From assembly GCF_040047665.1 (NCBI RefSeq), contig NZ_CP157355.1:62001-126000 (forward strand): a stretch of 64,000 bases of DNA, in the 5' to 3' direction. The notes beneath the pieces are model-generated. The model was not told the DNA's origin. It made no database searches and worked only from the letters and a program-made list of their open reading frames with translations. Positions 704 through 63,402 of the stretch are shown here, piece after piece. The stretch's first letter is position 1; every line of letters begins with the position of its first letter. Source of the DNA: Chitinibacter sp. FCG-7 (lineage in GTDB: Bacteria; Pseudomonadota; Gammaproteobacteria; Burkholderiales; Chitinibacteraceae). The position numbers and the translations under genes were made by a program.

Positions 704-752
704 GGGTATTACCCCAAAAAGCAATTAATACAAGACCTACAGAGCAATACCC
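704..752. repeat. 49-bp paired inverted element, copy 1 (GGGTATT / AATACCC)
   Basis: Perfect 7-bp inverted arms GGGTATT (704-710) and AATACCC (746-752) lie 42 bp apart in the aroE-mtgA gap. The right arm is part of CTACAGAGCAATACCC (737-752), identical to the arm of the copy at 43276-43324. Confidence 0.8.
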
Positions 753-767
753 ATTGTAGCCATGGAG

Positions 768-1604
768 TTACAGCTGGGTGCGCATCCAGTCCAGCACGGG
801 CGCGACATCAGGGCGCAGGCCAGTCCACACATGAAACGCCTCGGCTGCCTGCCCCACCAGCATGCCCAGACCATCAACGCGCTGCGTCACGCCCGCCTCG
901 CGCACCTGAGCCAGAAACGGCGTTTCATCCTTGCCATACATCATGTCGTAAGCGAGGGCACCCGGCGCAAAGACTGAATCGGCAATCGGCAAGCGCTCGC
1001 CGCCAAGACTGGCGGAGGTGGCGTTGATGATCAGATCAAACTGGCCGGAAATCGCGGTGTATTCACAAGCTTGCAAAGGAATCGGCGTATTGCGTTGAAA
1101 ATGCTCAATCAGATTTTGCGCCTTACTCAAGGTACGGTTCGCCAGCGTCAGACTTGCGGGGGGTTGCGCCAGCAAGGGGAGTATCACGCCACGCGCCGCG
1201 CCGCCTGCGCCCAGCAGCAAGATACGCCTACCCCGTATATCGGTATGGCGCAGGACATCGGCCACCAGACCTGCTCCGTCGGTATTGTCACCCAGCCAGC
1301 TACCATCGCTTTGCAGTTGCAAGGTATTGACCGCTCCTGCGGCTTGGGCTCGTTCGCTCAAAGTGCTTGCCAGACGAAAAGCTTCTTCTTTAAAAGGCAC
1401 CGTTACATTCGCGCCACGCCCGCCTGCGGCGGCAAAGTCATTCACACTGACCGCAAAGCCATCCAGCGGCGCGAGCAGTCGCTCGTATGAAAAGCCCTCA
1501 ACGACAGGATGACCCGCAAACTGCGCTGCAAATGCAGCGTGAATCTGGGGCGATTTGGAATGGGCAATCGGGTTGCCGATCACAACATAAGTTGCTTGGG
1601 TCAT
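768..1604 (-). CDS. aroE: Shikimate dehydrogenase (NADP+)
   Basis: AroE reduces 3-dehydroshikimate to shikimate with NADPH in the chorismate pathway, in the cytosol. The 278 residues match the family length. Visible motifs are the shikimate-binding NPIAHSKSP (11-19), NVTVPFKE with the catalytic Lys72, NTDG with the catalytic Asp109, and the NADP-binding glycine-rich GAGGAARG (132-139). It is the middle gene of a leftward run, 80 bp after a rhodanese gene and 77 bp before mtgA. ATG at 1604 places [10 protein letters not shown] at the start of the Rossmann-like N-terminal domain, which fits the family. Confidence 0.97.
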
Positions 1605-1630
1605 GGGTTAGATCGCGGCACAAATAAAAA

Positions 1631-1660
1631 GTGAGGCGTAGTTTACACTGCACGCCTCAC
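1631..1660. other. Inverted repeat between the rhodanese gene and aroE
   Basis: Arms GTGAGGCGT (1631-1639) and ACGCCTCAC (1652-1660) are perfectly complementary with a 12-bp loop. No T-run follows on the minus strand, so this is a weak terminator at best. The words GCCTCAC and TTACACC just here recur in the ntrC/STAS gap near 16672-16690. Confidence 0.5.
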
Positions 1661-1684
1661 GCCTTACACCTTTGCCGTCACAAA

Positions 1685-4021: not shown

Positions 4022-4348
4022 TCAGTTATTTATGGCCATTGGTGCACCATTCACCACCCGCCATGGCAGTGCGGGGTCGGGGGTACGGGTCATTAGTTGC
4101 AGGTGATGCTCAACGACGCTTTTCAGTATTTCCAGTTGCGCCTCCTCCTGCGCACAGAGGCGGAAACACAGCTGGTTTTCGCTGGCGGCCAGCTGCAACT
4201 CGCCAAAGTCAAAATAGGCCACGCCATGCTCGGCATCAAAATCGACGCGGATTTTGCGGGCAAAGTGTTTGCACAGCTTAAAGAGGTATTGCTTTGCAAG
4301 GCTTGTATCTACTTGGGTTTCAACCATTACCATATCTGGGTATCTCAT
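4022..4348 (-). CDS. DUF2218 domain protein
   Basis: About 108 residues matching the DUF2218 pattern: KQYLFKLCKHFARKIRVDFD, then a short FGELQLAA strand and an LEILKSVVEHHLQL helix. The function of DUF2218 is not established, but the family often sits beside siderophore or heme uptake genes, as here, where it is the last gene of a leftward ABC-uptake run. The ATG at 4348 lies directly after the ATPase stop codon; starts at 4333 and 4327 are also possible. A long upstream extension into the ATPase gene is unlikely. Confidence 0.75.
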   Translation of the reverse strand: MRYPDMVMVETQVDTSLAKQYLFKLCKHFARKIRVDFDAEHGVAYFDFGELQLAASENQLCFRLCAQEEAQLEILKSVVEHHLQLMTRTPDPALPWRVVNGAPMAINN

Positions 4349-6207: not shown

Positions 6208-7325
6208 AAGCCTGCCTCAACCCAGAAGGTGCCAGCCAGCGGTACCGGCTGAAAGCGTTGGTAAAACTGCTGCAGGCTGGCTTGCGGGTTTAAATGGGCA
6301 AATTGCTGCGGGTACAGCCATTTGGCCATCACCTGCACGGCAATCACATTGGCGGCACTGTAATTAAACTGATGCGACAGCGCGTAGGCGCGGCCACTTT
6401 GCACAGCCTTGAGCTGGGCAAACCCCGTGCGGCTCAGGGCGCGCCGCAAGCTGGCCTGCGCAGTAGCGCGATCAATGCCCGCGCCCAGCGCAATGCGCGG
6501 ACTGCGCGGGTCGCGCGCAGTGTTCGGATTGCCAATGCCGGTGCCGATATACACTTCGGGCTGTTGCTGCAGCAAAAACTCCAGGCTCACCGTGCCATGC
6601 GCACCGGGGACGATGGCGTTGGCGATATTGTCGCCGCCCGCCGCGACAACAAAAGTGCCGAGCATGCCGTGCGTCAGCGTTTCGCAGCAGCTATTACCCA
6701 GCCCGACGCGGCTTTCCAGAAACACCGTGGTTTTGCGCGGCAGCTTGGTCAGCCCTGCGGTGACCTTGGCCATTTCGCCACGATAAAATGCGAGGTATTG
6801 CTCTGCAGCCTTCTGCCTACCTAGCACCTGGCCTAATACCTCGATGCTTTTTTCTGTATTGCGCAGCGGGTCTTTATTAAAATCCACATACACCACCGCA
6901 ATACCTGCTTTGGACAAACGCTGCATCGTGGCTTGATCGTTCAGATCCGGCCCATGCCCGCCCAGACTGAAAATTGCCAGTTGCGGCTTGAGCGCAATCG
7001 CTTCTTCAACGCTAAAGCTCTGGCTACTGCGCCCCAGCCGGGTAATCTGATCCAGATTCGGATAGGCCTTGCGGTATTGCGCATAGCTGCCAGGATCAAG
7101 CTGCTCAAAATCACCCAGCATGCCAACCACCCGCTTGGCGGGTAATTCCCGATCCAGAATCGCCAGACTCGACAGCATGCGCCCTTCGCCCAGAATAATC
7201 CGCTCGACCTTGGCCGGAATCGGCACCGTGCGCCCCGCCAGATCGACCACCGTGGCGGCCTGCGCAATCGTCGCAGTGAGTAATAGGCTGGCCAATGCCA
7301 GCCAGCTTTCTAGTTTTAATTTCAT
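6204..7325 (-). CDS. Periplasmic substrate-binding protein of the iron/heme-type importer
   Basis: A 373-residue class III (PBP-II helical backbone) binding protein. The signal peptide is clear, with cleavage likely after AQA near residue 23. The mature protein starts ATVVDLAGRTVPIPAKVERIILG, typical of FecB/BtuF-type proteins, and has ALKPQLAIFSLGG in the first lobe. It is larger than usual BtuF. It lies 86 bp downstream of a TonB receptor with an attenuator-like hairpin between, and overlaps the permease by 4 bp. The ligand is unknown; ferric siderophore or heme is inferred from context. Confidence 0.9.
   Translation of the reverse strand: MKLKLESWLALASLLLTATIAQAATVVDLAGRTVPIPAKVERIILGEGRMLSSLAILDRELPAKRVVGMLGDFEQLDPGSYAQYRKAYPNLDQITRLGRSSQSFSVEEAIALKPQLAIFSLGGHGPDLNDQATMQRLSKAGIAVVYVDFNKDPLRNTEKSIEVLGQVLGRQKAAEQYLAFYRGEMAKVTAGLTKLPRKTTVFLESRVGLGNSCCETLTHGMLGTFVVAAGGDNIANAIVPGAHGTVSLEFLLQQQPEVYIGTGIGNPNTARDPRSPRIALGAGIDRATAQASLRRALSRTGFAQLKAVQSGRAYALSHQFNYSAANVIAVQVMAKWLYPQQFAHLNPQASLQQFYQRFQPVPLAGTFWVEAGL
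6793..6841. repeat. 49-bp paired inverted element, copy 2 (AGGTATT / AATACCT)
   Basis: Perfectly complementary 7-bp arms with the 42-bp offset, wholly inside the binding-protein gene. The left arm continues as GCTCTGCAG, close to the GCTCTGTAG of the 43276 copy. Confidence 0.7.
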
Positions 7326-12374: not shown

Positions 12375-12995
12375 ATGCAAGCGATTATTGTGTTCGATTT
12401 TGGCGGTGTACTGTTTGACTGGAACCCGGATTACCTTTATCAAAGCCTGATACCCGACGAGGCCGAGCGCGCAAGGTTTCTGGAGCATGTGTGCAATCCG
12501 GCGTGGAATATCGAGCAGGATAGAGGCCGCCCGATTGCCGAGGCGATTGCGATCAAGGCTACCGAATATCCACACTACGCCGAGCAGATCGCCGCTTTTT
12601 ACCAGCGCTGGCCCGAAACATTACGCGGCCTGCTGCCCGAGGGCATGGCGCTGTATCAGGCACTTAAACAGGCGGGCTATCCGATTTTCGGCCTGACCAA
12701 CTGGTCCGATGAAACGTTTCCCTACGCCTGGGAGAATTATCCATTTCTGCATGAGATCACCGACATCGTGGTATCTGGCCGTATCGGTTTAATCAAGCCG
12801 GATCCAGCGATATACCACACCATGTATCAACGTATCCTACAGCACTACCCGGAGGCCAAACCCGAGCAGCTGATTTTTATCGACGATGCCGCGCACAATG
12901 CGCAAGGCGCACGCAATGTGGGCTGGCAGGCCATTCACCACACCAGCGCAGGCGAAACGGCCGCACGTCTTCGCGAACTGGGTTTGGCGTTTTAA
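12375..12995 (+). CDS. HAD-superfamily hydrolase (YihX-like phosphatase)
   Basis: A 206-residue HAD-family hydrolase. Motif I is DFGGVLFDW, with nucleophile Asp8 and Gly in place of the second Asp, as in the YihX/epoxide-hydrolase-like branch. Motif II is LTNWS, motif III the Lys in LIKPDPAIYH, and motif IV FIDDAAHNAQGA. It probably dephosphorylates a small metabolite; the substrate cannot be named. It is followed 25 bp later by a SelW-like gene on the same strand. A 49-bp inverted element falls inside it at 12769-12817. Confidence 0.88.
   Translation: MQAIIVFDFGGVLFDWNPDYLYQSLIPDEAERARFLEHVCNPAWNIEQDRGRPIAEAIAIKATEYPHYAEQIAAFYQRWPETLRGLLPEGMALYQALKQAGYPIFGLTNWSDETFPYAWENYPFLHEITDIVVSGRIGLIKPDPAIYHTMYQRILQHYPEAKPEQLIFIDDAAHNAQGARNVGWQAIHHTSAGETAARLRELGLAF
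12769..12817. repeat. 49-bp paired inverted element, copy 3 (TGGTATC / TATACCA)
   Basis: GGTAT and ATACC at the 42-bp offset, flanked by T and A that extend the complementarity, inside the HAD hydrolase gene over the codons around LIKPDPAIY. Confidence 0.6.
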
Positions 12996-17935: not shown

Positions 17936-18874
17936 TTATTGTTTTAAGGCGGCACTGAGTTCGGGTACAACGTCAAACAGATCGGCCACCAGACCGTAAT
18001 CGGCCACTTTGAAAATCGGCGCTTCAGCATCATGATTCACCGCCACAATCACTTTGGCGTCCTTGATCCCGCCAACGTGCTGGGCTGCGCCCGAGACGCC
18101 AAAAGCAATATACAAATCAGGCGCAATCACCGTGCCGGTCTGCCCGACTTGCGCGTCATTCGGCGCCATGCCGCTGTCCACGGCCGCGCGCGTTGCGCCG
18201 ATGGCCGCGCCCAATTGCGCCGCCAGTGGCTCTAAGGTGTCGTGGAATATTTCCTTGCTACCCAGTGAGCGACCACCTGAGATCACCACTTTGGCGCTCG
18301 CTAGCTCGGGGCGATCTGAAACGGCCAGTTCACGGGAAATAAATTGCGCTTTACCCGCGTCACCCGTCGCTGCGATCGACTCCACTGCCCCATCACCGCC
18401 CGTTTCCGCCACGGCTTCAAATACCGTCTGGCGAATGGTGATCAGCGCCAGCCCGGCGGGCGCGGTCACCGTCGCGTTCAGGTTGCCGGCATAAATCGGG
18501 CGGACAAAAGTGCGCTCGCCGATGATTTGGGTGACTTCCGACACCATCGCTGCGTCAAGCAAGGCCGCTGCGCGTGGCAGCAGGTTTTTGCCAAAGCTCG
18601 TTGCTGCCGCCAGCACCGTGCTGTAGCCGGGCGCCAGTTTGACCAGCAGCGGGGTGAGATTTTCGGCGATGCCGTTGGCGTACTCGGCCGCATCAGCGAC
18701 TAGTATCTTGCTCAAGCCCTTGATAGATTTGGCTTGCAGAGCAATACCTTCAAGATCACTTCCTGCCAACAATAAATGTACGTCGCCCCCCAGTTGGCCC
18801 GCCGCCGTAATGGCAGAACGCGTTGCGGCCTTGATGCCGTGGCTATCGATTTCAGCAATCACAAGAATACTCAT
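17936..18874 (-). CDS. etfA: Electron transfer flavoprotein alpha subunit
   Basis: EtfA holds the FAD of the ETF heterodimer, which collects electrons from acyl-CoA and other flavoprotein dehydrogenases. The 312 residues show the C-terminal FAD domain: VISGGRSLGS near 210, then GQTGTVIAPDLYIAFGVSGA and QHVGGIKDAKVIVAVN. The gene overlaps etfB by 4 bp, giving 1:1 translation. The partner quinone oxidoreductase is encoded divergently 150 bp beyond etfB. Confidence 0.97.
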   Translation of the reverse strand: MSILVIAEIDSHGIKAATRSAITAAGQLGGDVHLLLAGSDLEGIALQAKSIKGLSKILVADAAEYANGIAENLTPLLVKLAPGYSTVLAAATSFGKNLLPRAAALLDAAMVSEVTQIIGERTFVRPIYAGNLNATVTAPAGLALITIRQTVFEAVAETGGDGAVESIAATGDAGKAQFISRELAVSDRPELASAKVVISGGRSLGSKEIFHDTLEPLAAQLGAAIGATRAAVDSGMAPNDAQVGQTGTVIAPDLYIAFGVSGAAQHVGGIKDAKVIVAVNHDAEAPIFKVADYGLVADLFDVVPELSAALKQ

Positions 18875-19773: not shown

Positions 19774-21408
19774 ATGAGCAATCGCGATCAAATGCAATAC
19801 GATGTCGTCATTGTTGGTGCAGGGCCAGCCGGTTTGTCGGCCGCCATCCGGCTCAAGCAGCTCAATAGCGAACTGAGCGTCTGCATTCTGGAAAAAGGCG
19901 CGCAAGTTGGCGCGCACATTATGTCGGGCGCGGTGATTGACCCTATTGGTTTAAATCAATTACTCCCCGACTGGCAAAACCGCCAACCGCAACTGGCAAC
20001 ACCCGTGAGCGCTGATGAATTTCTGGTGCTCGACGAAGATGCCAGCTACCGCCTGCCGCATGCCTTACTGCCACCACCACTACGCAATGACGGCTGTTTC
20101 ATCGTGCGCCTAGGCGAAGTGTGCGCCTTTCTGGCGCAAGAGGCGGAAAAGCTCGGCGTTGAAATCTACCCCGGCTTTGCCGCCAGCGAGGTTTTATACA
20201 ATGAGCTAGGCGCGGTATGCGGCATAGCCAGCGGCGATATGGGCATTGCCAAGGACGGCAGCTACAAAGCCGACTACACGCGTGGCATTGAAATTCTGGC
20301 CAAATACACCCTGATCGGCGAAGGTGCGCGCGGCTCGCTGACCGGCGAGCTGGAAACGCATTTCGGCCTGCGCAGCCAAAGCGATCCGCAACACTACGGG
20401 CTGGGCATTAAAGAAGTCTGGCAGATCGCGCCCGAGCAGCACCAGCTGGGCAAAGTGCAGCACGCGCTGGGCTGGCCACTCGATAGCGACGCGCAAGGCG
20501 GCGCATTTATCTATCATTTGCCCAATAATCTGGTCGCAGTCGGTTATGTGGTCCACCTCAATTACCGCAACCCAACGCTATCGCCATTTGATGAATTGCA
20601 GCGTTTTAAAACTCATCCCAGCATTCGCCCGTTATTCAAAGGCGGCAAACGCATCGCCTATGGCGCACGCGCAATTGCCGAGGGCGGCTGGCAATCACTA
20701 CCGCAGCTCTCCTTCCCCGGCGGCCTACTGATGGGCTGTGCGGCGGGCCTGCTGAATTTTCCGCGCATCAAGGGCGTGCACAACGCCATGCTATCGGGCA
20801 TGGCGGCTGCGCAGGCGGTGAACGCAGCAATCAGCGCCGGGCGCGAAAACGACAAACTGGCCGACTACCAGACGCAGCTCGACAGCAGCGGCGTGCTGCC
20901 CGAGCTGCACAGCGTGCGCAACATCAAGCCTGCGCTGGCCAAACTGGGCACACTGACTGGCACGATGTACGCTGGTACCGAGCTGTGGCTAGCCCGTTTC
21001 GGCGTAAAACTGCCATGGACGCTGCGCAGCAAACTACCCGATCATGCCTATCTCAAAGCGGACTGTACCCCGATCAAATACCCCAAACCGGATGGCATAC
21101 TGACCTTTGGCAAGCTGGACTCGCTCACCCTCGCAAATGTCTCGCACGAGCACGATCAGCCCGTACATATGCAGCTACGCAACGCAGAGCTAATTACACC
21201 GGTGCATTTAAGCCATGAAATCAAGGCCGAATGCCATTATTGCCCGGCAGGCGTGTATGAAATTGTCGAGTTGGCCGGACAGAAAAAATACCAGATCAAC
21301 GCGCAAAACTGCCTACACTGCAAAACCTGTGACATCAAGGACAGCGCGCAAAATATCCACTGGGTCACCCCCGAAGGCGGTGGCGGCCCCATGTATACAG
21401 GCATGTAG
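19774..21408 (+). CDS. etfD: Electron transfer flavoprotein-ubiquinone oxidoreductase
   Basis: ETF-QO passes electrons from reduced ETF to ubiquinone at the inner membrane. The 544 residues begin with a FAD Rossmann motif VVIVGAGPAGLSAA (11-24). The C-terminus has the [4Fe-4S] ligands in CPAGVYE and CLHCKTCDIKD. A GMAAAQAV segment and the monotopic hydrophobic stretch are consistent with the family. It is divergent from etfBA, so all three ETF pathway genes are together. Highly conserved in Proteobacteria, so the call is firm. Confidence 0.97.
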   Translation: MSNRDQMQYDVVIVGAGPAGLSAAIRLKQLNSELSVCILEKGAQVGAHIMSGAVIDPIGLNQLLPDWQNRQPQLATPVSADEFLVLDEDASYRLPHALLPPPLRNDGCFIVRLGEVCAFLAQEAEKLGVEIYPGFAASEVLYNELGAVCGIASGDMGIAKDGSYKADYTRGIEILAKYTLIGEGARGSLTGELETHFGLRSQSDPQHYGLGIKEVWQIAPEQHQLGKVQHALGWPLDSDAQGGAFIYHLPNNLVAVGYVVHLNYRNPTLSPFDELQRFKTHPSIRPLFKGGKRIAYGARAIAEGGWQSLPQLSFPGGLLMGCAAGLLNFPRIKGVHNAMLSGMAAAQAVNAAISAGRENDKLADYQTQLDSSGVLPELHSVRNIKPALAKLGTLTGTMYAGTELWLARFGVKLPWTLRSKLPDHAYLKADCTPIKYPKPDGILTFGKLDSLTLANVSHEHDQPVHMQLRNAELITPVHLSHEIKAECHYCPAGVYEIVELAGQKKYQINAQNCLHCKTCDIKDSAQNIHWVTPEGGGGPMYTGM

Positions 21409-21458
21409 TATCTGCTTGTAGACTTTATTAAATATGCCCTACAAGGCTATACTCTATA

Positions 21459-24348: not shown

Positions 24349-25403
24349 AGATTTTGATCGTTACCGACGCTTGGGAACCCCAAGTCAATGGTGTGGTACG
24401 CACTCTCAAACAAACGCGCGCCGAACTACAAAAAATGGGCCACACCGTGGACTTGCTCACGCCACTGGAATTCAAGACCGTCCCTTGCCCGACCTACCCT
24501 GATATTCGCCTGTCCATTCTGCCGGGCAGCAAGGTCAAGCAGCGCATCAGCGAATTTGCCCCCGATGCAATCCACATCGCCACCGAAGGCCCGCTGGGCT
24601 TGGCTGCACGCAAATATTGCCTGAAACACAAACTGCCCTACACCACGGCCTACCACTCGCGCTTCCCGGAGTATGTGCAGCTGCGCTTTGGTATTCCTTT
24701 ATCGTGGACCTATGCCTGGCTGGCGCGTTTTCACAACTCCGCACAAGCCGTCATGGCGCCGACACGCGTGGTGGTGGAAGACCTGGAAAAACGCGGCATC
24801 AAGAATGTTGTACTGTGGTCGCGTGGCGTTGACCTGGAAGTGTTCAAACCCGGACGGCGCGACAAACTGGCCTCGCGCTCACCGATTTTTGTGTATGTCG
24901 GCCGCGTGGCGGTGGAAAAAAACGTGCAGGCATTTCTGGAGCTCGATTTGCCCGGCAGCAAATGGATCGTCGGCGATGGCCCGGCCGCAGCGGGGCTCAA
25001 AGCACAATACAAGGATATGCCCAATATTCACTGGCTGGGCGTGCTCAATCAAACCGAGCTGGCCGAAGTGTATAGCAGCGCTGATGTGTTTGTTTTCCCG
25101 AGCAAGACCGATACTTTTGGCCTGGTATTGCTCGAAGCAATGGCCTGCGGTTGCCCTGTAGCGGCATACCCTGTCACCGGCCCGATTGATGTCATCGGTC
25201 AGGATGGTCCGGGCTCGCTCAATGAAGACCTGCGCGAAGCGTGTATTGGTGCGCTGCATATTGATCGCGACGAAGTACGCCGCTTTGCCGAGCGCTACTC
25301 ATGGGCCGCTGCCAGCCGCCAGTTTGCCTCACACCTGCATCCATTCACCCCGCACGCACAGCAAGAATTGCGTCTGGCCGAGCAAGGTGCGGGCGGCGAA
25401 TAA
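24345..25403 (+). CDS. GT4-family glycosyltransferase
   Basis: A 352-residue GT-B glycosyltransferase. The N-terminal lobe opens MKILIVTDAWEPQVNGVVRTLKQT; the C-terminal lobe has FVYVGRVAVEKN near 185 and the E-x7-E motif in FGLVLLEAMACGCPVAAYPV near 262. Related proteins transfer mannose, glucose or galactose to diacylglycerol or phosphatidylinositol-like lipids. Pairing with an LpxH-like phosphatase supports a membrane-lipid role, as inference. A 49-bp inverted element lies over the conserved EAMACG codons. Confidence 0.9.
   Translation: MKILIVTDAWEPQVNGVVRTLKQTRAELQKMGHTVDLLTPLEFKTVPCPTYPDIRLSILPGSKVKQRISEFAPDAIHIATEGPLGLAARKYCLKHKLPYTTAYHSRFPEYVQLRFGIPLSWTYAWLARFHNSAQAVMAPTRVVVEDLEKRGIKNVVLWSRGVDLEVFKPGRRDKLASRSPIFVYVGRVAVEKNVQAFLELDLPGSKWIVGDGPAAAGLKAQYKDMPNIHWLGVLNQTELAEVYSSADVFVFPSKTDTFGLVLLEAMACGCPVAAYPVTGPIDVIGQDGPGSLNEDLREACIGALHIDRDEVRRFAERYSWAAASRQFASHLHPFTPHAQQELRLAEQGAGGE
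25123..25171. repeat. 49-bp paired inverted element, copy 4 (TGGTATT / CATACCC)
   Basis: GGTAT and ATACC at the 42-bp offset within the glycosyltransferase gene. The left arm extends as TGGTATTGCTC, close to the consensus GGGTATTGCTC. Confidence 0.6.
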
Positions 25404-27453: not shown

Positions 27454-29847
27454 CTAGTTGCAGGCGCAGCTGCCAGTGTGCGCTGGAGTGAATACGCGTG
27501 TGGCATCAATCACAATGCGCTGCCCCTGGGCAAGTGCCGCGCGTGCTGCATGCGTGGCGGTCAGCATATTGGCCAGCGCCGCTTCGGTTTCCGGCCAACC
27601 GCGTGTTTTCAGGCCGCAATCGGGATTGATCCACAGTTGCTCAGCCGGAACGACTTCGAGCGCTTTGGCGATCAGCCGCAACATCTCATTCACCTGCGGC
27701 ACGCGCGGGCTGTGAATATCGTAAACGCCGGGGCCGATTTCATTTGGATAGCTGAAATGGCCGAAAGCTTCGAGCAATTCCATATCCGAACGGCTGGTTT
27801 CAATCGTGATCACATCGGCGTCCATCGCCGCAATCGCGGGCAGAATGTCGTTAAATTCCGAATAGCACATATGCGTGTGAATCTGCGTGTCATTGGCAAC
27901 GCCCGAGGCCGAAATCCGGAAAGCACGCCCAGCCCAAGCCAGATAGTCTGCCCAATCGGCTTGTTTCAATGGCAAACCTTCGCGGAAAGCTGGTTCGTCA
28001 ATCTGGATAATGCCGATGCCAGCGGCCTCCAGATCACACACCTCATCACGAATCGCCAGCGCGATCTGATCGCAAGTGGTCGAGCGCGGCTGATCGTCAC
28101 GTACGAATGACCATTGCAAAATCGTCACCGGCCCGGTCAGCATGCCTTTCATCGGCTTTGTAGTCAGGCTTTGCGCGTAGCTCGACCAAGCCACGGTCAT
28201 TGGCTTATTTCGTGACACGTCACCGAACAAGATCGGCGGTTTAACGCAGCGACTGCCATAGCTTTGCACCCAGCCAAATTGCGTAAATGCAAAGCCCGCC
28301 AGCTGCTCGCCAAAATACTCAACCATATCGTTGCGCTCGGCTTCGCCGTGCACCGGCACATCAATGCCTAATTGGTCCTGCTTTTGCACCACCAGCGCGA
28401 TCTCGGCCTTCATTGCTGCTTCGTACTGCTCAACCGAAATTTCACCGCGTTTAAATGCCGCCCGCGCAGCGCGAATTTCCTTGGTTTGCGGGAACGAGCC
28501 TATCGTCGTCGTTGGCAGCACTGGCAGATTAAAGCGTGCGCGCTGCGCTGCCTGACGCGTCACAAACGGTGCCAGACGCTGATCGATCTGCCCATCCAGA
28601 TTGGCCAGCCTTACCGCCACCGCCGGATTATGAATCCGCTGGGAGGTGCGACGTGCATGCTGCGCGGCCTGGTTTGTTGCCAGCTCGGCGCTGACATCCT
28701 GCCCGTTGAGCGCTTGTTTCAGAATGCTCAATTCAGCCAGTTTTTGCTTGGCAAATGCCAGCCACGATTTCAACTCGCTATCAAGCTGCGCCTCCTTCGT
28801 TTCTTGTTCCAGATCAACCGGCGTATGCAGCAATGAGCAGCTAGGCGCAATCCACAGCGCAGCTCCCAGGCTGGCGTGCACAGCTTGCAATTTTCTCAGT
28901 GCCTGCCCCAGATCTGCAGCCCAGATATTGCGGCCATCAATGATGCCAACCGACAGTATTTTTGGCGTTTTTTGCGCAGCCCAGACATCGGCAAACGGCG
29001 AGAGCTGGTCTGGCGCACGCACTGCATCAATATGCACGCCAGCCAGCGGCAAATCGGCCAGCAATTGAGCGTGCTCGGCAACCGAATCAAAATACGTCGC
29101 CAGCAAGATGGGCACGCCCGCACAAGCCAGCGTGCGATAAACTGGCTCAAATGCACTCACCCACTCAGCAGGTAGCGACAAAGCCAGAATCGGCTCGTCA
29201 AGCTGCAGATGCGCCACGCCCAGACTCGCCAGCTGACCAACAACACGGGTATAGGCTGCAACAATAGCGGGAATAAGCTCTAGCTTGCTATACCCATCCT
29301 GCTTGCATTTGGACAACCACAAGAAAGTCAAAGGCCCCGGCAGCACCACTTTAGCCTGATGGCCTTGCGCCAGCGCGTCTGCTACCTCGTCAAACAACCA
29401 GTTCACCCCCCCGTCAAAGCGGGTTTGGCGACTGAGCTCGGGCACCAGATAGTGGTAGTTGGTATCGAAATACTTGGTCATTTCCATCGCAAACTGCTCG
29501 GTATTACCGCGAGCGAGTTCGAAATATTGCGGCAGGCTCAGGGCCTGGGCGTCAAAGCCGAAACGCGGTGGAATCGCGCCAAGTAGTGCCGCCGTATTCA
29601 GTATCTGGTCGTACCAGGCAAAATCGCCCACGGTGACAAAATCCAGCCCTGCTGCGGCCTGCCAATCCCAGTGACGACGGCGCAGCGTCTGGCCGGTTTG
29701 CGCTAACTCGGCCTCACCGATTTCGCCACGCCAGAATTTTTCCAGCGCAAATTTGAGCTCGCGCTGCGCACCGATGCGCGGAAAGCCCAGAATATGCGCC
29801 TTCACGCCCAGATCATTCACGCCACTTAATGCATTAATCGTACTCAT
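27454..29847 (-). CDS. metE: Cobalamin-independent methionine synthase
   Basis: MetE methylates homocysteine with methyltetrahydropteroyl-triglutamate in the last step of methionine synthesis, without B12. The 797 residues include both barrels; the zinc and homocysteine site appears in HTHMCYSEF and in [11 protein letters not shown] near the C-terminus, which is intact. ATG at 29847 has GAGGTG upstream; a frame five codons longer is less likely. It is divergent from a MetR-like regulator. Having MetE fits an organism whose B12 supply varies, given the cobalamin cluster downstream. Confidence 0.97.
29247..29295. repeat. 49-bp paired inverted element, copy 5 (GGGTATA / TATACCC)
   Basis: Perfectly complementary 7-bp arms with the 42-bp offset, inside metE. 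On the coding strand the arms fall on GGG TAT and TAT ACC, using an uncommon glycine codon. Confidence 0.7.
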
Positions 29848-42102: not shown

Positions 42103-42151
42103 GGGTATATCACCCCAGGGCAATCTAGCATTGGCCTGCATAAATATACCC
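42103..42151. repeat. 49-bp paired inverted element, copy 7 (GGGTATA / TATACCC)
   Basis: Perfectly complementary 7-bp arms with the 42-bp offset, intergenic, upstream of argD and downstream of the four-TM protein gene. Confidence 0.75.
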
Positions 42152-43275: not shown

Positions 43276-43324
43276 GGGTATTGCTCTGTAGGCAATGTTA
43301 AATCTAATCTACAGAGCAATACCC
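43276..43324. repeat. 49-bp paired inverted element, copy 8 (perfect 16-bp arms)
   Basis: The best copy: GGGTATTGCTCTGTAG (43276-43291) and CTACAGAGCAATACCC (43309-43324) are perfectly complementary with a 17-bp loop, and can form a long hairpin. It lies between yciO and the site-2 protease gene, both leftward. Confidence 0.9.
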
Positions 43325-48180: not shown

Positions 48181-48948
48181 TCACCCCACTGGGACAAACC
48201 AACACTTCCCATCCTGCTCAATTGCAGATACAGGATGATGGTATAGCCTGCTAAGACAATCTGTATTTAGCACATCAGCCAATACCCCTGCCTGCCATTG
48301 TCCATTACCAAATAGCAGCAAGGCGTGCGTCGCGAATTGGGTGGCGTGGTTGGGGTCGTGGCTGACCATCACGATACTGCGGCCAGCGGCGCACTCTTCG
48401 CGCAGCACTTGCAAGGCTTGTTGCTGATGGCGCAGGTCGAGCTGCGATAGCGGCTCGTCGAGCAGCATCAGCGGCGCTTGTTGCGTCAGCGCGGTGGCCA
48501 GCGCGACACGGCGGCGTTCACCACCGGATAGGCTGGCCAGATCGCGCTCGTCAAAGCCGCACAAATCGAGCAGCGTCAATTGCTCGCGCGCCAGCGCCAG
48601 ATCGGCAGCGCTTTCCCATTGCCAGCGGCTCAGGTGCGGGTGGCGGCCGGTGAGTGTTTTTTCCAGTACGGTCAGCGGAAACGGGCATTCGTCGTGCTGC
48701 GTTTGCCACGCCACAGACTTGGCGCGCTGCGCAGGCGCAACTTCAGTCAAGGGTTGGCCGTTGAGCAGTATTTGTCCGTGCAGCGGCTTAAACCAGCCAG
48801 CCAAGGCTGCAAGCAGCGTGCTTTTGCCGCAGCCGTTTTCGCCAAGCACAATCCACGCCTCGCCCGAGTTGATCTCAAAGCTTAAATCGTCGATTAACAG
48901 CCGCTCGCCCTGCTGAAGGCTGAGATTTTGTACTTGCATTAAACTCAT
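48181..48948 (-). CDS. btuD: Cobalamin ABC transporter ATPase
   Basis: A 255-residue ATPase. Walker A GENGCGKST (36-44), signature LASLSGGERRRVALA near 136-150, Walker B LMLLDEP near 160 and switch His in MVSHDPNHA. ATG at 48948 overlaps the permease stop by 4 bp; the frame extends 85 codons upstream inside the permease gene, which is an artefact. Last gene of cbiA-btuF-btuC-btuD, which together with the btuB run assigns it to cobalamin or a cobinamide rather than iron. Confidence 0.9.
   Translation of the reverse strand: MSLMQVQNLSLQQGERLLIDDLSFEINSGEAWIVLGENGCGKSTLLAALAGWFKPLHGQILLNGQPLTEVAPAQRAKSVAWQTQHDECPFPLTVLEKTLTGRHPHLSRWQWESAADLALAREQLTLLDLCGFDERDLASLSGGERRRVALATALTQQAPLMLLDEPLSQLDLRHQQQALQVLREECAAGRSIVMVSHDPNHATQFATHALLLFGNGQWQAGVLADVLNTDCLSRLYHHPVSAIEQDGKCWFVPVG
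48239..48287. repeat. 49-bp paired inverted element, copy 10 (TGGTATA / AATACCC)
   Basis: GGTAT and ATACC at the 42-bp offset near the 3' end of btuD. The codon phase differs from the metE and cydB copies. Confidence 0.6.
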
Positions 48949-55899: not shown

Positions 55900-56907
55900 T
55901 CAGCTGATCGCATGGGCGATGAGCAGCAAGGCTACGCAAGATAGCAGCCACAAGGCCAGCGTTTTTTTCACCAGCACGATGCTACGGGCAATATCGGCTG
56001 CTTGCGGTGCAGGCCCGGCGCCCAGCGCGGTGCGTTGCTCAATCTGCCCGTGATACATGGCATTGCCACCCAGCGTAATGCCTAATGCGCCCGCCCCGGC
56101 GGCCATCACTGGCCCGGCATTCGGGCTATCCCAGCGTGGCGCCTGACTGCACCAGCATTGCCATGCCGTGCGAGTCTGGCCTAGCACGGTGTAGGACAAA
56201 GCGGTTAATCGCGCCGGAATAAAATTGAGCACATCATCAAGCCGCGCGGCGCAGCGGCCAAAACAATTCAAGCGTGGCGTGCGATAACCCCACATGGCGT
56301 CGAGAGTATTGGCCAGTCGATGCAAAATTGCGCCCACACCGCCGAGCAGCACAAACCAGAATAAGGTGGAAAAAATCGCATCCGCGCCGTTTTCCAGATT
56401 GGACTCGATCGCGCCTTTGGCGATCTCGGTGTCACTGAGCTGGCTGCAATCGCGGCTCACAATCATGCTCAGCGCGATGCGCGCAGCGGGTAAATCATTG
56501 GCGAGCAGTGGCGTCGCAATCGCGCGCACATGCACCAGCAGGCTATTGGCCCCCAGCGCAAACCACAGCGCCGCGCCATTGAGCAGCACGAGACTGATTA
56601 AATTGGCGCTCAAGGTAGCAGTCTCGCTGCCGAGTAAATGCGGCTGAACATACTGCAAGTACAGAGCATGGATACCCCAATACAAACCACAGGGTATTGC
56701 CAGCAAGAGCAGTACAGACAGAGCCCCCATGGCAATACCCGTCACCGTATTGTATCGGCAGGGAGGATTTAGGCGCTGTTCCAGCCATTTTGCCCACCGG
56801 CCAAAACCCACCAGTGGGTGAAAACGGCGCGGCTCGCCGACGCACCACTCCAGCGCCAACCCGAAGGCCAGCGCCAGCAGCAGTATCAGTGGCGAGTGCA
56901 GCAGCAT
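55900..56907 (-). CDS. cbiB: Adenosylcobinamide-phosphate synthase
   Basis: CbiB joins aminopropanol (phosphate) to adenosylcobyric acid at the membrane. The 335 residues have several hydrophobic segments and the family motifs EWCVGEPRRFHPLVGFGRWA near 21-40, DCSQLSDTEIAKGAIESNLENGADA near 155-179 and the conserved DAMWGYRTPR near 205. It is 3 bp after btuB and 15 bp before cobC. One of the three perfect 49-bp elements lies in its coding sequence. Confidence 0.95.
   Translation of the reverse strand: MLLHSPLILLLALAFGLALEWCVGEPRRFHPLVGFGRWAKWLEQRLNPPCRYNTVTGIAMGALSVLLLLAIPCGLYWGIHALYLQYVQPHLLGSETATLSANLISLVLLNGAALWFALGANSLLVHVRAIATPLLANDLPAARIALSMIVSRDCSQLSDTEIAKGAIESNLENGADAIFSTLFWFVLLGGVGAILHRLANTLDAMWGYRTPRLNCFGRCAARLDDVLNFIPARLTALSYTVLGQTRTAWQCWCSQAPRWDSPNAGPVMAAGAGALGITLGGNAMYHGQIEQRTALGAGPAPQAADIARSIVLVKKTLALWLLSCVALLLIAHAIS
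56692..56740. repeat. 49-bp paired inverted element, copy 12 (GGGTATT / AATACCC)
   Basis: Perfect arms, extended to GGGTATTGCC / GGCAATACCC (10 bp, fully complementary), inside cbiB. The codon phase differs from every other coding copy (third base of a codon at the arm start). Confidence 0.75.
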
Positions 56908-56910: not shown

Positions 56911-58740
56911 TTACTTGGGCGACCAGCGTACATTGAGCATGCCGTTCACGCCCAAAGTGCCATAGTCGTGCACCTGCGTGTACGCTTTATCAAAGACATT
57001 GTTGACCCGTGCAGCAACAGTCCAGTCTTTGCTGAGCTGGTATTCGGCCAGCAGATTGGTCAGCGCATAGCCGCCCAAAGTGACACGACCCACGCCGTAC
57101 ACATCGTCATAACGCTGGCCTTGCAGCTGAACCTCGGCGCGCACCCGCCACGCCGACTGGCTGAAGCCCGCGTAAATCAGGCCACTCTGACGCGCACGCA
57201 GCTCAAGCTGGCGATCGGCTTTCTGATCCAGCGCATCCAGATAGTCAAAGCTCAAGCCTGCCTCAAGACCGTTGCTGGCCCAGTCGGCCGTCAGCGTCAG
57301 GCCGGAGAGCTTGACCTTATCAACGTTTGAAACCGCGTTTTTCTGGTTCAGGATGAAATTTTTCACCTGATTGCGATACAGCGTGGCGCCCAGCTGCAGG
57401 TTGTTGGTCTGGTAACGGGCAAACAATTCGCCACCAGCCGATTCCTGCGGCTTCAGATACGGATTGCTCCAGCCGGGGTAGTACAGCTGATTAAAAGTCG
57501 GTGCCTGATAGCCCGTGCCGTAGCTGCCGCCCAGCTGCAGGCCGTGATTCACCTGCCATGACGCGCCCAGCGTGCCGGTGGTCTGGCGACCGAATTGCGA
57601 ATTGTCATCGCTGCGCATATTGGCTTGCAGCGTTACCGCGCCCAGATTGGCCAGATAGCCGCCCAGCACACTATTGATGCGGCGCTGCGTCACGTCATAT
57701 TTGGTCGTGCCCGAGACATCTTGCGCCAGCGTTTCCAGCGCCAGCGTCAGCACGCCGGGGCCAGCCTGCAGATTGTTCTGCCATGAAAACTGGGTTTGCC
57801 GCGTTTTAAAGCGGCTCTCTTCCTGCGCCCAAGCGCTAGGCGGCTGATAGCTGTAGCTGTCGTCGATACTGCTACCGGCCAGCAGTTTGCTCTGCCAGGC
57901 GTCGGTCAACTGATGCTCGCTCCAGACGCTGGCGGCCAGATTGGTGCCGTGATCGCGGTAATTGTAATATTTGCTGGTTGAGGTGTTGTCGTACTGATTG
58001 GCCACTTTGGCGTACAGCAGGCTGGCGCCAAAGGCATGGGCGGCATTGAGCTGATGGCTGGCGCTCAATGACAGGCTGTTATTTTCATAGCCGTCGTCGT
58101 CGGCATTGAATTTCTGGTATTTGGGCAAGACCAGCGCGCTCTCGCCGTCGGTTTTGCTGTGTGCCAAACCAATTGAGAAGCGCGTTTGCTCGTTGCCGCC
58201 AGAGAGGCTGGCGCTGGCTTCAACGCTGTTTTGCGTGCCATAGCCCACGGCAATACTCGGCGTAAAGCCTTTGCCGCCGCGCTTGGTGAAAATCTGGATC
58301 ACGCCGCCGATGGCGTCAGCACCGTACAAGCTGGCCGCCGGGCCGCGCAGAATCTCGATCCGGTCTACTTGTGCCAGCGGAATATGCTGCAGTGCAGCGC
58401 CGCCCGAAGTAGCCGAGCCATAGCGCACGCCGTCGATCAGCACCACGGTCTGGCTGGAGTTGGCACCCCGGATAAACACGGCCATATTTTTGCCCGCGCC
58501 GCCGTTACTCATCATTTGCAAACCGGGCTGTCTGGCCAGCAATTCGGGCAGGCTGGCGCTGGCTTGGGTTTCAATCTGCGCACGCTCGATCACAGTGACA
58601 TCGCCCACGACTTCACGGGCGGGCTGCGCAATGCGGGCTGCGGTGACAACAATTTCGTCGAGCTGAGTGATTTCGGCATGCGCCATGGCCGAAAGAGCCG
58701 ACAAACAGAGCAGGTATAGCTTGGAAAAACGCGTATTCAT
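56911..58740 (-). CDS. btuB: TonB-dependent vitamin B12 receptor
   Basis: A 609-residue outer-membrane receptor. The signal peptide ends AMAHA; the TonB box is DEIVVTAAR; the plug (about 35-150) has RQPGLQMMSNGGAGKNMAVFIRGANSSQTVVLIDGVR and the LYGADAIGGVIQI motif; the barrel follows. ATG at 58740 has GGAGG nine bases upstream; the frame runs to 58779 across a hairpin but is not signal-like there. The upstream cobalamin riboswitch makes the B12 assignment firm. It is the first gene of the btuB-cbiB-cobC-binding protein-cobO run. Confidence 0.95.
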   Translation of the reverse strand: MNTRFSKLYLLCLSALSAMAHAEITQLDEIVVTAARIAQPAREVVGDVTVIERAQIETQASASLPELLARQPGLQMMSNGGAGKNMAVFIRGANSSQTVVLIDGVRYGSATSGGAALQHIPLAQVDRIEILRGPAASLYGADAIGGVIQIFTKRGGKGFTPSIAVGYGTQNSVEASASLSGGNEQTRFSIGLAHSKTDGESALVLPKYQKFNADDDGYENNSLSLSASHQLNAAHAFGASLLYAKVANQYDNTSTSKYYNYRDHGTNLAASVWSEHQLTDAWQSKLLAGSSIDDSYSYQPPSAWAQEESRFKTRQTQFSWQNNLQAGPGVLTLALETLAQDVSGTTKYDVTQRRINSVLGGYLANLGAVTLQANMRSDDNSQFGRQTTGTLGASWQVNHGLQLGGSYGTGYQAPTFNQLYYPGWSNPYLKPQESAGGELFARYQTNNLQLGATLYRNQVKNFILNQKNAVSNVDKVKLSGLTLTADWASNGLEAGLSFDYLDALDQKADRQLELRARQSGLIYAGFSQSAWRVRAEVQLQGQRYDDVYGVGRVTLGGYALTNLLAEYQLSKDWTVAARVNNVFDKAYTQVHDYGTLGVNGMLNVRWSPK

Positions 58741-58751
58741 TAGAGCCTCCG

Positions 58752-58774
58752 GCAATACACCCTCAGTGTATTGC
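58752..58774 (-). promoter_or_regulatory. Hairpin adjoining the btuB ribosome binding site
   Basis: On the minus strand GCAATACAC-tgagg-GTGTATTGC forms a perfect 9-bp stem ending one base before CGGAGG. There is no T-run, so translational rather than transcriptional control by the upstream riboswitch is likely. Confidence 0.55.
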
Positions 58775-61243: not shown

Positions 61244-61245
61244 TC

Positions 61246-62271
61246 ATGCTAACAACCATTGATCTGGCCTACTGGCTACCCGTAATTTTTGCCGCGCTAA
61301 TGGTGATCTCGATGTTCGCCTATGTCATCCTCGACGGGTATGACCTTGGCGTCGGCATTTTGCTTGAGCTAGAGAGCAATACCCACGAAAAAGACAAAAT
61401 GATCGCCGCCATTGGCCCCTTCTGGGATGCCAACGAGACCTGGCTGGTGCTCGGCGTCGGCCTGCTGCTGGTGGCTTTTCCAATGGCGCATGGCGTGATT
61501 CTCACGGCGCTCTATCTGCCGGTGGCGCTGATGCTGCTGGGGCTGATTTTGCGCGGCGTGGCGTTTGATTTTCGCGTCAAAGCGCAAGCGCATCACCAGC
61601 CACTGTGGAATCGACTCTTTTTTGTCGGCTCGCTACTGGCGACTGTTTCGCAAGGCGTGATGCTGGGGCGTTACCTCACCGGCTTCGCTCCCGGCTGGGG
61701 CGCGTGGGGCTTTGCGCTGCTGGTGGGTGCGAGCTTGGTCGCTGCGTATGCGCTGATCGGCGCGAGCTGGCTGATTATGAAATCGACCGGCGCGCTGCAA
61801 CAACGCGCAGTCGTCTGGGCACAACGCAGCGTGTGGTTTGCTGCCTTGGCGGCGGTGCTAGTGTCGATTGCCACACCGTGGGTCAGCCCACGCGTATTTG
61901 ATTTGTGGTTTTCTCTGCCCAATGTCTTCCTACTCGCGCCCGTGCCGATCATGAGCGCCGCGCTATTTGGCGTGATCGCCTATTCGCTGCCGAAACTTGC
62001 GCAACGTCAGCGCAACGGCAATGATAACTTCTGCTGGATCCCCTTCGCCGCCACCGTCAGCATTGTGCTGCTGTCGTTCTTTGGCTTGGTCTACAGCATC
62101 TTCCCGCATTTGGTGATTGACCAGCTCACCATCTGGCAAGCTGCCAGCAGCACCGAGGCATTACAGATCATGTTCTTTGGCGCAGCACTGGTACTCCCCA
62201 CCATCATCGGCTACACGATTTATTCGTATCGGGTGTTCTGGGGTAAGGCGGGAGAACTGAGTTATCAGTAA
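61246..62271 (+). CDS. cydB: Cytochrome bd ubiquinol oxidase subunit II
   Basis: CydB is the second membrane subunit of the bd oxidase. ATG at 61246 has GGGGAG upstream and follows cydA by 2 bp; the frame runs back to 61039 inside cydA but is not CydB-like there. The 341 residues include the conserved ILDGYDLGVGILLELE near 25-40 and IGPFWDANETWLVLGVG near 54-70. No CydX-like micro-gene was found downstream. Confidence 0.96.
   Translation: MLTTIDLAYWLPVIFAALMVISMFAYVILDGYDLGVGILLELESNTHEKDKMIAAIGPFWDANETWLVLGVGLLLVAFPMAHGVILTALYLPVALMLLGLILRGVAFDFRVKAQAHHQPLWNRLFFVGSLLATVSQGVMLGRYLTGFAPGWGAWGFALLVGASLVAAYALIGASWLIMKSTGALQQRAVVWAQRSVWFAALAAVLVSIATPWVSPRVFDLWFSLPNVFLLAPVPIMSAALFGVIAYSLPKLAQRQRNGNDNFCWIPFAATVSIVLLSFFGLVYSIFPHLVIDQLTIWQAASSTEALQIMFFGAALVLPTIIGYTIYSYRVFWGKAGELSYQ
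61336..61384. repeat. 49-bp paired inverted element, copy 13 (GGGTATG / AATACCC)
   Basis: GGTAT and ATACC at the 42-bp offset inside cydB, the left arm on the codons of the invariant DGYD. The right arm is AGAGAGCAATACCC, sharing AGAGCAATACCC with the intergenic copies at 704 and 43276. Confidence 0.65.
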
Positions 62272-62433
62272 TGAGAACAACAAGCACTGCAAGGGCGGCC
62301 GTTCCGCGTCGCCAATGCAGTGCTAGGCAACCCCATACTTTCTGACAAGTTGCGCACATGAGACGACATCGGCGCGTAACCATCCTCACACCTAGCAGGC
62401 TGGTATGATGCGGTTTTCCCGTACGCCTGAACG

Positions 62434-62916
62434 ATGATGGATCGCGACATTACTCTGAATATCCAGCAGCAGCATCCCGATATGCGGGTGCGGTTTTTAT
62501 TGTCAAAAATTCTCAAGCACCAGAGCTATTCGGAGCGAAAAAGTCGGCGTCTTAAGCGCACGACTTATGTACTGAAGTTTTCCATGCTGGCGCTGGCGGC
62601 GGCGTCCACGGTGGTGCTGGGGCTAGATGCGGCGATTTTGCTGCCGTATGCCAAAAATATTGCGCTGGTACTGGGCGCGATCATGACTTTGCTGGGCGGG
62701 ATTGCCAGCTTTTTGAATATAGAAGAATACTGGATGCGCAATAATGCGATTCACTTGCGGCTTAAGGGATTGCGTGACCGGCTGGTGTATCTGTCGGCGG
62801 ATCTGCAGCGCATTGAAGAGGACGCACTGCAAAGCCTGATCAATGATTATCAGGCGATTACCGAGAGCAATATCAACTACTGGCATGAAGCGATTGCCGA
62901 ACGCAATGTGGCGTAA
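62434..62916 (+). CDS. Two-TM SLATT-like domain protein
   Basis: A 160-residue protein with a basic cytosolic N-terminus (KHQSYSERKSRRLKR), membrane segments near 48-68 and 73-93, then an amphipathic helical tail with a conserved-looking NIEEYWMRNNAIHLRLKGLRDRL. This layout fits the SLATT superfamily, predicted pore-forming effectors associated with nucleotide- or ligand-triggered defence systems, but here no SLOG, SMODS or nucleotide-sensing partner is adjacent. The family call is moderate. It is followed 6 bp later by a DUF1353 gene. Confidence 0.6.
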   Translation: MMDRDITLNIQQQHPDMRVRFLLSKILKHQSYSERKSRRLKRTTYVLKFSMLALAAASTVVLGLDAAILLPYAKNIALVLGAIMTLLGGIASFLNIEEYWMRNNAIHLRLKGLRDRLVYLSADLQRIEEDALQSLINDYQAITESNINYWHEAIAERNVA

Positions 62917-62922
62917 TCCGGG

Positions 62923-63378
62923 ATGACAGCGATTTATTACCAGCCGCGCCGCCATTATCACTACACTCTGGCGCAGCCTTGCGAATTTGATCTGGGCTGG
63001 CCGTTGCCGCAGCCGATTGAATCGCCCTTTATTTGCCTTAGTTGCGATGGCAGGCTGCGTCTGGCCGAGCGCTACGCTTGGGACGGGGCGAGCGGGCCTA
63101 TGCCTGACTTGCCCAGCATTATGCGGGCTTCATTGCTGCACGACGCGCTGTATCAGCTGATGCGCGAGGGCCATCTGGATCGCCAGCGTTTTCGCCGGCC
63201 GGCCGATCAATTGCTGCTACAGGCGTGCCGGGCTGACGGGATGAATGTGCTGCTGGCCTATTGGGTATATGCCTGCGTACGGCTGTTTGGCGAGCGCCAT
63301 GCACGCAGCAATGTGAAGACTCTCAGCAACCCGCCGCTGCACAATATCCAACAGGGTATTGCCTCAAAGAACAATTGA
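62923..63378 (+). CDS. DUF1353-like protein
   Basis: A 151-residue protein. The core YAWDGASGPMPDLPSIMRASLLHDALYQLMREGHL and the later RRPADQLLLQACRADGM match the phage-associated DUF1353 pattern, which carries a conserved HD pair. No phage genes are nearby. It probably forms an operon with the preceding SLATT-like gene. The 3' end overlaps a 49-bp inverted element. Confidence 0.75.
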   Translation: MTAIYYQPRRHYHYTLAQPCEFDLGWPLPQPIESPFICLSCDGRLRLAERYAWDGASGPMPDLPSIMRASLLHDALYQLMREGHLDRQRFRRPADQLLLQACRADGMNVLLAYWVYACVRLFGERHARSNVKTLSNPPLHNIQQGIASKNN

Positions 63379-63402
63379 TAATTAGCCTACAAACATATAC
63401 CC
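63354..63402. repeat. 49-bp paired inverted element, copy 14 (GGGTATT / TATACCC)
   Basis: GGTAT and ATACC at the 42-bp offset, straddling the stop codon of the DUF1353 gene and the gap to the convergent methyltransferase gene. The left arm extends to CAGGGTATTGCC. Confidence 0.7.

What the first reader, a model, noticed from the sequence alone, without database searches (positions are those of the whole stretch)
704..63402. Dispersed DNA element: inverted GGTAT/ATACC halves always 42 bp apart, in 14 exact copies
Seen directly: GGTAT followed by ATACC with starts exactly 42 bp apart occurs at 704, 6793, 12769, 25123, 29247, 33304, 42103, 43276, 44919, 48239, 54966, 56692, 61336 and 63354 (outer-edge starts; each spans 49 bp). 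With equal base frequencies about 64000/4^10, or 0.06, is expected. Most copies extend to GGGTATT(GC)...(GC)AATACCC. At least nine lie wholly inside genes (binding protein, HAD hydrolase, glycosyltransferase, metE, SemiSWEET, btuD, cobC, cbiB, cydB), in all three codon phases, and the proteins show no insertion there, so selection is on DNA. 42 bp is four turns of B-DNA, placing both halves on the same face. This suggests a binding site for an abundant multimeric protein that bridges or wraps DNA, about one site per 4.6 kb. I know no described Neisseriales element of this form (it is not a DNA uptake sequence, parS, matS or SlmA site).
Basis: partly seen in the sequence, partly recalled or inferred. 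Interest (0 to 1): 0.92.

Follow-up and report, generated by a model that had tools for sequence, protein, structure and literature searches.

The report
Evenly spaced two-part chromosomal DNA sites
About a thousand copies of one long, symmetric DNA signal are spread at unusually even distances over the chromosomes of three related bacterial genera, inside genes as well as between them, which points to a chromosome-wide DNA-binding system whose protein is still unknown.

Summary
GGTAT-N37-ATACC occurs 542 times in this 3.58-Mb genome against 1 for the reversed control; a profile finds 251 sites in 864 kb, about one per 3.4 kb. Of 43 genomes of the family, the 15 of three genera carry 259-542 exact copies, the 28 of eight other genera 0-8; no genome outside the family exceeds 8 among 399 of the order. 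Copies inside genes exceed synonymous-codon shuffles 46 to 1.6, and their boxes are 95-100% identical between congeners where flanks are 74-78%. Gaps are far more even than random (CV 0.69 vs 0.99). New here: 36% of sites in this genome have a third box 12-13 bp outside one end, almost never both. Low-GC regions and plasmid-like contigs nearly lack sites. Best reading: sites of an intracellular, symmetric DNA-binding protein that organises the chromosome. A motif spread by biased DNA uptake is the main rival. The binder is unproven; an HU-family paralog occurs in all 15 site-bearing genomes but also in one site-less genus.

The parts
705..751 (.). site, both boxes exact, intergenic, 42.5 bits; a profile site lies at the corresponding place in G006
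4285..4331 (.). weaker site, one box with 1 mismatch, outer third box on the right
6794..6840 (.). exact site inside periplasmic binding protein gene; conserved in congener G006
12770..12816 (.). exact site inside HAD hydrolase gene; conserved in G006
18702..18748 (.). site with 1 mismatch inside a gene; conserved in G006
21407..21453 (.). site with 2 mismatches at a gene end, 34.6 bits
22490..22536 (.). weaker site inside a gene, outer box on the left
24670..24716 (.). weak profile hit (11.2 bits) in the glycosyltransferase gene; near threshold
25124..25170 (.). exact site inside glycosyltransferase gene; exact in 8 of the 12 aligned genomes of genera g1 and g7, absent from the 2 of g4 and the 16 aligned site-less genomes
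29248..29294 (.). exact site inside metE; conserved in G006
33305..33351 (.). exact intergenic site; a profile site lies at the corresponding place in G006
34094..34140 (.). weak profile hit (11.8 bits) inside a gene, outer box on the left; near threshold
42104..42150 (.). exact intergenic site; no counterpart in G005
43277..43323 (.). exact intergenic site, strongest in the window (46.8 bits); no counterpart in G005
48240..48286 (.). exact site inside ABC-transporter ATPase gene
56693..56739 (.). exact site inside cbiB
58713..58759 (.). weaker site inside a gene, outer box on the right
63355..63401 (.). exact site overlapping a gene end, outer box on the left

Best explanation
The repeats are about 1,000 chromosomal binding sites for an intracellular, sequence-specific homodimer or dimer of dimers. 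SHOWN: each site has two inverted boxes, GGGTAT and ATACCC, with box starts 42 bp apart; a second conserved zone (T11 G12 N A14 G15) 10 bp inside each box; and an A/T-rich dyad. About a third of sites in this genome have a third, outward box 12-13 bp beyond one end, and the neighbouring inner box is then relaxed. Genic sites stay at the same codons between species while the sequence around them changes, and sites are spaced more evenly than chance all along the chromosome. INFERRED: a protein binds; its subunits sit on one face of the DNA and bend or wrap the dyad; and the sites anchor a chromosome-wide architectural or maintenance function in which one site per few kb is enough and a second nearby adds little. 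The binder is unknown; the leading candidate found is a clade-specific HU-family paralog.
For: Fixed spacing and near-perfect dyad. Strong unpaired halves are few: 27, against 12 strong halves in the shuffle and 297 in all. Synonymous-shuffle excess 46 vs 1.6. Box identity 0.95-1.00 vs flanks 0.74-0.78 within the genus and 0.80-0.85 vs 0.60-0.61 to genus g7. Orthologous genic sites kept in G006 (6 of 6 and 10 of 11), G005 (3 of 3 each way) and G017 (5 of 7 and 4 of 6), and 0 of 12 comparisons with site-less genera. Even spacing in the five genomes sampled. Flat density in the four quarters of the chromosome. Third box, used on one side only. A phage contig carries two profile sites (32.6 and 18.8 bits), 8 and 0 bp after stop codons, as many host sites do, which suggests a function inside the cell. 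Genus g8, next to g1+g7 in a one-gene tree (support 91/86), lacks the sites (0 in 80 kb) and has no close match to the HU paralog.
Against: No protein is shown to bind. Genus g9 has the HU paralog in 7 of 9 genomes (plus one partial match) without these sites and, in the one genome sampled (420 kb), without a visible dialect, so that protein alone is not sufficient. The contigs that look like plasmids carry almost no sites, so the function is not needed by every replicon. A/T-rich, foreign-looking regions lack sites, which uptake-driven accumulation also predicts. G000 boxes are not conserved in genus g4 (78 of 130 vs flanks 0.67). The polarity of the third box with the G-rich strand (105 of 155) is only modestly above background: p = 0.004 against 57%, 0.02 against 60% for exact six-base matches.
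Confidence: 0.5

Rival explanations
1. An uptake-signal-like motif: a surface DNA receptor prefers DNA with the site, and transformation plus recombination drives the motif to about 1,000 copies without an intracellular role.
For: Abundance, even spacing, enrichment between genes, and near absence from plasmid-like and low-GC DNA are what uptake sequences would show; PMC1939737 (passages) reports that others saw significant even spacing of the H. influenzae and Neisseria sequences, though its author judges them not as even as compaction sites should be. ComEC is present in 43 of 43 genomes.
Against: Known uptake sequences have 9-12-nt cores (USS reaches 32 nt with A/T tracts) and are not palindromes (passages of PMC12616744 and PMC1939737); here two inverted boxes at a fixed distance define the element. 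A phage carries two sites. ComEC does not discriminate, being present in site-less genera too. No receptor was found or tested.
Confidence: 0.22
2. A gene-end element acting in transcription, for example a roadblock that stops or insulates RNA polymerase after genes.
For: 83 of 137 exact copies are intergenic where 15% of random positions are; 63 of 141 intergenic site-to-stop distances are 15 bp or less, against 19 of 111 site-to-start distances; copies are rare between divergent genes.
Against: 89 of 233 profile sites are wholly inside genes; 13 of the 45 copies listed near a stop are followed by a same-strand gene within 50 bp; copies in or at the edge of genes show no pairing constraint.
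Confidence: 0.1
3. A mobile palindromic repeat (MITE or REP-like) that spread by copying.
For: In the six g1 genomes the gap before hisG holds a site; in all seven g7 genomes it does not, and among site-less relatives with the same upstream gene end the gap can be as short as 4-5 bp.
Against: Genic copies align without visible insertion to relatives lacking the site; interiors differ between copies and between orthologues; spacing is regular. The 27 unpaired strong halves (12 in the shuffle) were not checked for flanking a transposase.
Confidence: 0.04
4. Chance or compositional artefact.
For: None found.
Against: Reversed-pattern, dinucleotide-shuffle, codon-shuffle and other-genome controls do not produce it.
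Confidence: 0.01

Closest known systems
DNA uptake sequences (DUS of Neisseriaceae, USS of Pasteurellaceae)
   Same: Many hundreds to thousands of dispersed copies, in genes and between them, evenly spread, restricted to clades
   Different: Those have 9-12-nt non-palindromic cores; here two inverted boxes in a 47-bp dyad, sequence unrelated. PMC3630211 (passages) reports no obvious DUS in five genomes such as Chromobacterium and Laribacter; Chitinibacter, Deefgea and Iodobacter do not occur in its main text
Chromosome-organising sites matS, NBS (Noc), SlmA sites, KOPS (recalled, no call)
   Same: Dispersed palindromic or polar sites read by a dedicated protein
   Different: Recalled as shorter sites, fewer or confined to chromosome regions or strand-polar; here about 1,000 long sites at flat density
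REP/BIME and Correia-type repeats (recalled, no call)
   Same: Palindromic, hundreds of copies, near gene ends
   Different: Recalled as inserted copies of one sequence, largely intergenic; here many sites lie in genes without insertion
HU/IHF-bound sites (recalled, no call)
   Same: A/T-rich dyad, long footprint, possible wrapping
   Different: HU is not known to me to read a strict box pair 42 bp apart; no binding shown here

Membership tests
DNA uptake sequence (DUS/USS) | genome-wide over-representation restricted to a clade | tested here: met
DNA uptake sequence (DUS/USS) | known DUS core GCCGTCTGAA or USS core AAGTGCGGT inside the element | tested here: not met
   by reading the consensus, which contains neither core
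DNA uptake sequence (DUS/USS) | raises uptake of DNA by competent cells | not testable with these tools
   needs an uptake assay
DNA uptake sequence (DUS/USS) | competence machinery present | tested here: met
   ComEC in 43 of 43 genomes, also in site-less ones, so not discriminating; other competence genes not tested
MukBEF/MatP-type organisation | MukB present in site-bearing genomes | tested here: not met
   marginal hits only (best 24.3 bits, cut-off 23) in 14 of 43 genomes, not matching site presence; MatP not tested
Mobile palindromic repeat (MITE/REP) | copies are insertions relative to empty relatives | tested here: not met
   genic copies compared; intergenic copies inconclusive
Structured RNA element | compensatory base pairing between the halves | tested here: not met
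   copies in or at gene edges 0.31 paired vs 0.31 expected; intergenic 0.45 vs 0.42, with the excess at positions 6-9; the one Rfam match in the window is not at a site
HU-paralog binding site | protein present wherever sites are | tested here: met
   15 of 15 site-bearing genomes of the family
HU-paralog binding site | sites present wherever the protein is | tested here: not met
   genus g9: protein in 7 of 9 (one more partial), no excess of sites, no dialect in the one genome sampled

The most novel reading that the evidence does not exclude
A chromosome-wide ruler: an HU-family paralog that gained sequence specificity in one clade wraps a two-box, sometimes three-box, site every 3 kb and divides the whole chromosome into small units, with selection having written about 1,000 long sites into genes and gaps.
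Probability: 0.12. Interest if true: 0.95.

Novelty: new variant of a known kind. Interest (0 to 1): 0.86.

Why it matters
If the sites are intracellular, this is a bacterial chromosome-organising code of unusual density, readable from sequence alone and testable by mapping occupancy and contacts. If they are uptake signals, they would be a lineage beyond the two families that PMC12616744 (passages) calls the only ones known to discriminate homologous DNA at this step, and palindromic ones. Either way, about 1,000 long sites per genome, a site-less neighbouring genus (g8) and strong in-gene conservation make the forces that create and space such sites directly measurable.

Tried and rejected
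Ends of an insertion sequence: unpaired strong halves number 27 against 12 in the shuffle; I did not check them for flanking transposases. Structured RNA or terminator: no covariation in copies in or at gene edges, no Rfam match at the window's sites. Condensin MukB and plasmid NAP KfrA (in 5 of 15 site-bearing and 11 of 28 site-less genomes): rejected as binder. Binder sought near the GC-skew switch at 1.75-1.8 Mb and among genes with a site upstream: nothing decisive. Independent origin in genus g4 was considered after (0 of 5 shared) and weakened: 2 of 13 shared, one of them just after a stop codon (lysS by my reading) and so not truly genic. A first reading by eye gave intergenic sites as mostly not conserved; the profile raised this to four of seven. 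Dialect search in one g9 genome: none. Replication polarity of the third box: weak after background correction. Within-half palindrome (inverted repeat inside the strongest halves): no supporting covariation. Literature: the listings showed nothing describing this element and one search returned no paper; only open-licence PMC text was searched. I saw passages of PMC1939737, PMC3630211 and PMC12616744, otherwise listings. (codon-adaptation ranking) failed because its reference set was empty; its output was not used. (DUS yardstick) used handles that proved not to be DUS-rich genomes, so no spacing yardstick was obtained. Viral contigs: six pattern scans (two of them, 30 and 38, found nothing); of 22 contigs with a match only L171 (32.6 bits) and L198 (28.2) exceed 25 bits, L196 and L199 (one sequence) score 22.1 and the other 18 at most 16.0.
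Full report
OBSERVATION. Offset 42 stands alone: 14 in the window with no other offset above 1; 137 in 864 kb against a mean of 0.9 per other offset, with 8 at offset 43. In the whole genome 542 exact pairs face 1 for the reversed pattern. A profile trained on exact copies finds 251 sites in 864 kb at a threshold set for about one false hit, of which 137 have both boxes exact.

WHO HAS IT. The window is bases 62001-126000 of a single 3.58-Mb contig. Named relatives of a window protein suggest the family Chitinibacteraceae: a Deefgea MAG carries three exact copies in 10.8 kb, one of them at the same codons of the glycosyltransferase gene; Andreprevotia, Jeongeupia and Amantichitinum loci carry no exact copy, and Andreprevotia one near-threshold profile hit of 10.0 bits. 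The family name is my inference from these names. Of 43 genomes of the family, 15 (genus g1 6, g4 2, g7 7) have 259-542 exact copies and 28 (eight genera) have 0-8, with control counts of 0-5. Among 399 genomes of the order, none outside the family exceeds 8, the highest being 8 against a control of 0. Among 398 of the phylum, searched with a pattern one base longer, G000 has 409 and the next genomes 4-5.

ANATOMY. Consensus of one half, from position 0: G G G T A T W K S C C T G N A G N N C W W T T T, with the dyad at position 24. Neighbouring positions 19-20-21 covary strongly (0.55 and 0.29 bits); positions paired by symmetry hardly do, as expected of a DNA-binding site rather than a hairpin. 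A third box, GTAT at position 55 or 56, occurs at 108 of 496 ends in G000 against about 1 expected per position, and at 37 of 118 ends in G010 (35 at position 55); in G017 it is rare, 6 of 154. With a 5-of-6 match to GGGTAT, 88 of 248 G000 sites have one outer box and 1 has two; G005, G006, G017 and G010 have 16, 16, 7 and 25 with one and none with two. Over 480 sites, 155 have one and 1 has two, where independence would give about 13 (my arithmetic). The inner box next to the outer box is exact in 31 of 88 sites, the far one in 76 of 88, and boxes of the other sites in 264 of 326. The outer box points along the G-rich strand in 105 of 155 cases, in the same sense in all six genomes, but similar words elsewhere do so in 57%, exact ones in 60%, leaving p = 0.004 or 0.02. 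I treat that polarity as unsettled.

SELECTION ON DNA. In genes, 46 exact copies face 1.6 (max 4 of 100) in shuffles that keep protein and codon usage. In orthologous genes, box bases are 59 of 60 and 105 of 110 identical to G006 (the two directions), 30 of 30 to G005, and 56 of 70 and 51 of 60 to G017 of another genus, while flanks are 0.74-0.77, 0.78 and 0.60-0.61. Towards genomes outside g1 and g7 there is no such excess: G000 boxes against g4 78 of 130 (flanks 0.67), against site-less genera 66 of 130 (flanks 0.66), and G006 boxes against site-less genera 47 of 70 (flanks 0.64). Orthologous genic sites persist in 6 of 6 and 10 of 11 (G006), 3 of 3 each way (G005), 5 of 7 and 4 of 6 (G017), 2 of 13 and 1 of 3 (g4) and 0 of 12 (site-less) comparisons. 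At the glycosyltransferase site, 8 of 12 aligned g1 and g7 genomes have the exact pair, three more differ in the first G and one has lost it; the 18 others (two g4, sixteen site-less) lack it and show no indel there. Of seven exact intergenic sites next to aligned congener DNA, four have a profile site at the corresponding place. All six g1 genomes keep a site in the gap before hisG, with diverged interiors; none of the seven g7 genomes has one there.

DISTRIBUTION. 129 of 233 profile sites are intergenic, 89 in genes and 15 across gene ends; gene calls are my own simple hexamer model covering 82% of bases. Of intergenic site-to-gene distances, 63 of 141 to a stop codon are 15 bp or less, against 19 of 111 to a start. 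Gaps between neighbours have CV 0.69 against 0.99 +/- 0.05 in 300 random placements that respect gene and intergenic location; 19 gaps are under 1 kb against 60 +/- 6, lowest 41. The other four genomes give CV 0.63-0.72. Density is 0.13-0.18 exact copies per kb in each quarter of the chromosome, from stretches covering 864 kb. Five-kb bins with GC at or below 0.50 (12 of 172) hold 3 sites in all, against 1.1-1.9 per bin elsewhere. Small contigs of site-bearing genomes, of which G005:C2, G018:C2 and G018:C3 look like plasmids (KfrA hits) and G005:C3 was assumed to be one, carry one weak site in the 95.6 kb examined; a further small contig, G005:C4, carries five in 20 kb and may be chromosomal. 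A phage contig has two profile sites in 14.7 kb, 8 and 0 bp after stop codons.

BINDER. An HU-family paralog of 104 residues (L001:13070-13384, minus strand; PF00216), whose gene lies next to lysS by my reading of the sequence, has orthologue-like matches in all 15 site-bearing genomes at 88-100 (g1), 77-80 (g7) and 51-52% (g4) identity. Of the 28 site-less genomes it is found at 62-63% in 7 of the 9 of genus g9 (G029 partial, G031 not found); in the rest the best hit is another HU-family protein at 40-46%, with G013 (51% over part of the protein) ambiguous. Genus g8, which a single-gene tree places next to g1+g7 (support 91/86), lacks it and has no site in 80 kb. In one g9 genome no dispersed dialect is visible in 420 kb by a scan that finds the element at once in G000, G017 and G010. 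The A/T steps at 19-20 and 28-29 are 9 bp apart, which I recall as the spacing of HU/IHF kinks; that is a lead, not a test. I keep the protein as a candidate only. Other binders could not be screened, because whole proteomes were not available.

WEIGHING. Dyad symmetry, the one-sided third box and the phage sites speak for an intracellular multimer. Even spacing and near absence from foreign-looking DNA are shared with uptake sequences, and I cannot exclude that rival. The function of either kind, and the protein, remain to be shown.

Noticed in passing
window 58888-59149 (-): Cobalamin riboswitch (71.2 bits), near the cobalamin genes.
   Followed up: no
L001:13070-13417 and L277-L298: Clade-specific HU-family paralog with a promoter-like CTGCGGCATAAT in most g1 and g7 genomes; a site lies 47-98 bp after its stop in all 7 g7 and 3 of 6 g1 genomes.
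   Followed up: partly
L176:4803-4849 and L001:12928-12974: A site directly after the same gene's stop codon (lysS by my reading) in both genus g4 and genus g1, suggesting shared ancestry of the two sets.
   Followed up: partly
G521 (same phylum, other class): A different dispersed palindrome, GGGTATCCACGACTT...AAGTCGTGGATACC, 4-5 matches and none in the control; looks like a hairpin repeat.
   Followed up: no
L198 (IMGVR_UViG_2524614555_000002) 1174-1220: Viral contig piece of 64% GC with one strong site (28.2 bits); host unknown.
   Followed up: partly
G005:C2 5236, 18769, 32271: Three KfrA matches of equal score about 13.5 kb apart on a 43-kb contig: a plasmid multimer or an assembly duplicate.
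   Followed up: no
G000:C1:345838-349792: Four sites about 1.3 kb apart with similar interiors, perhaps tandem gene duplicates that carried the site along.
   Followed up: no
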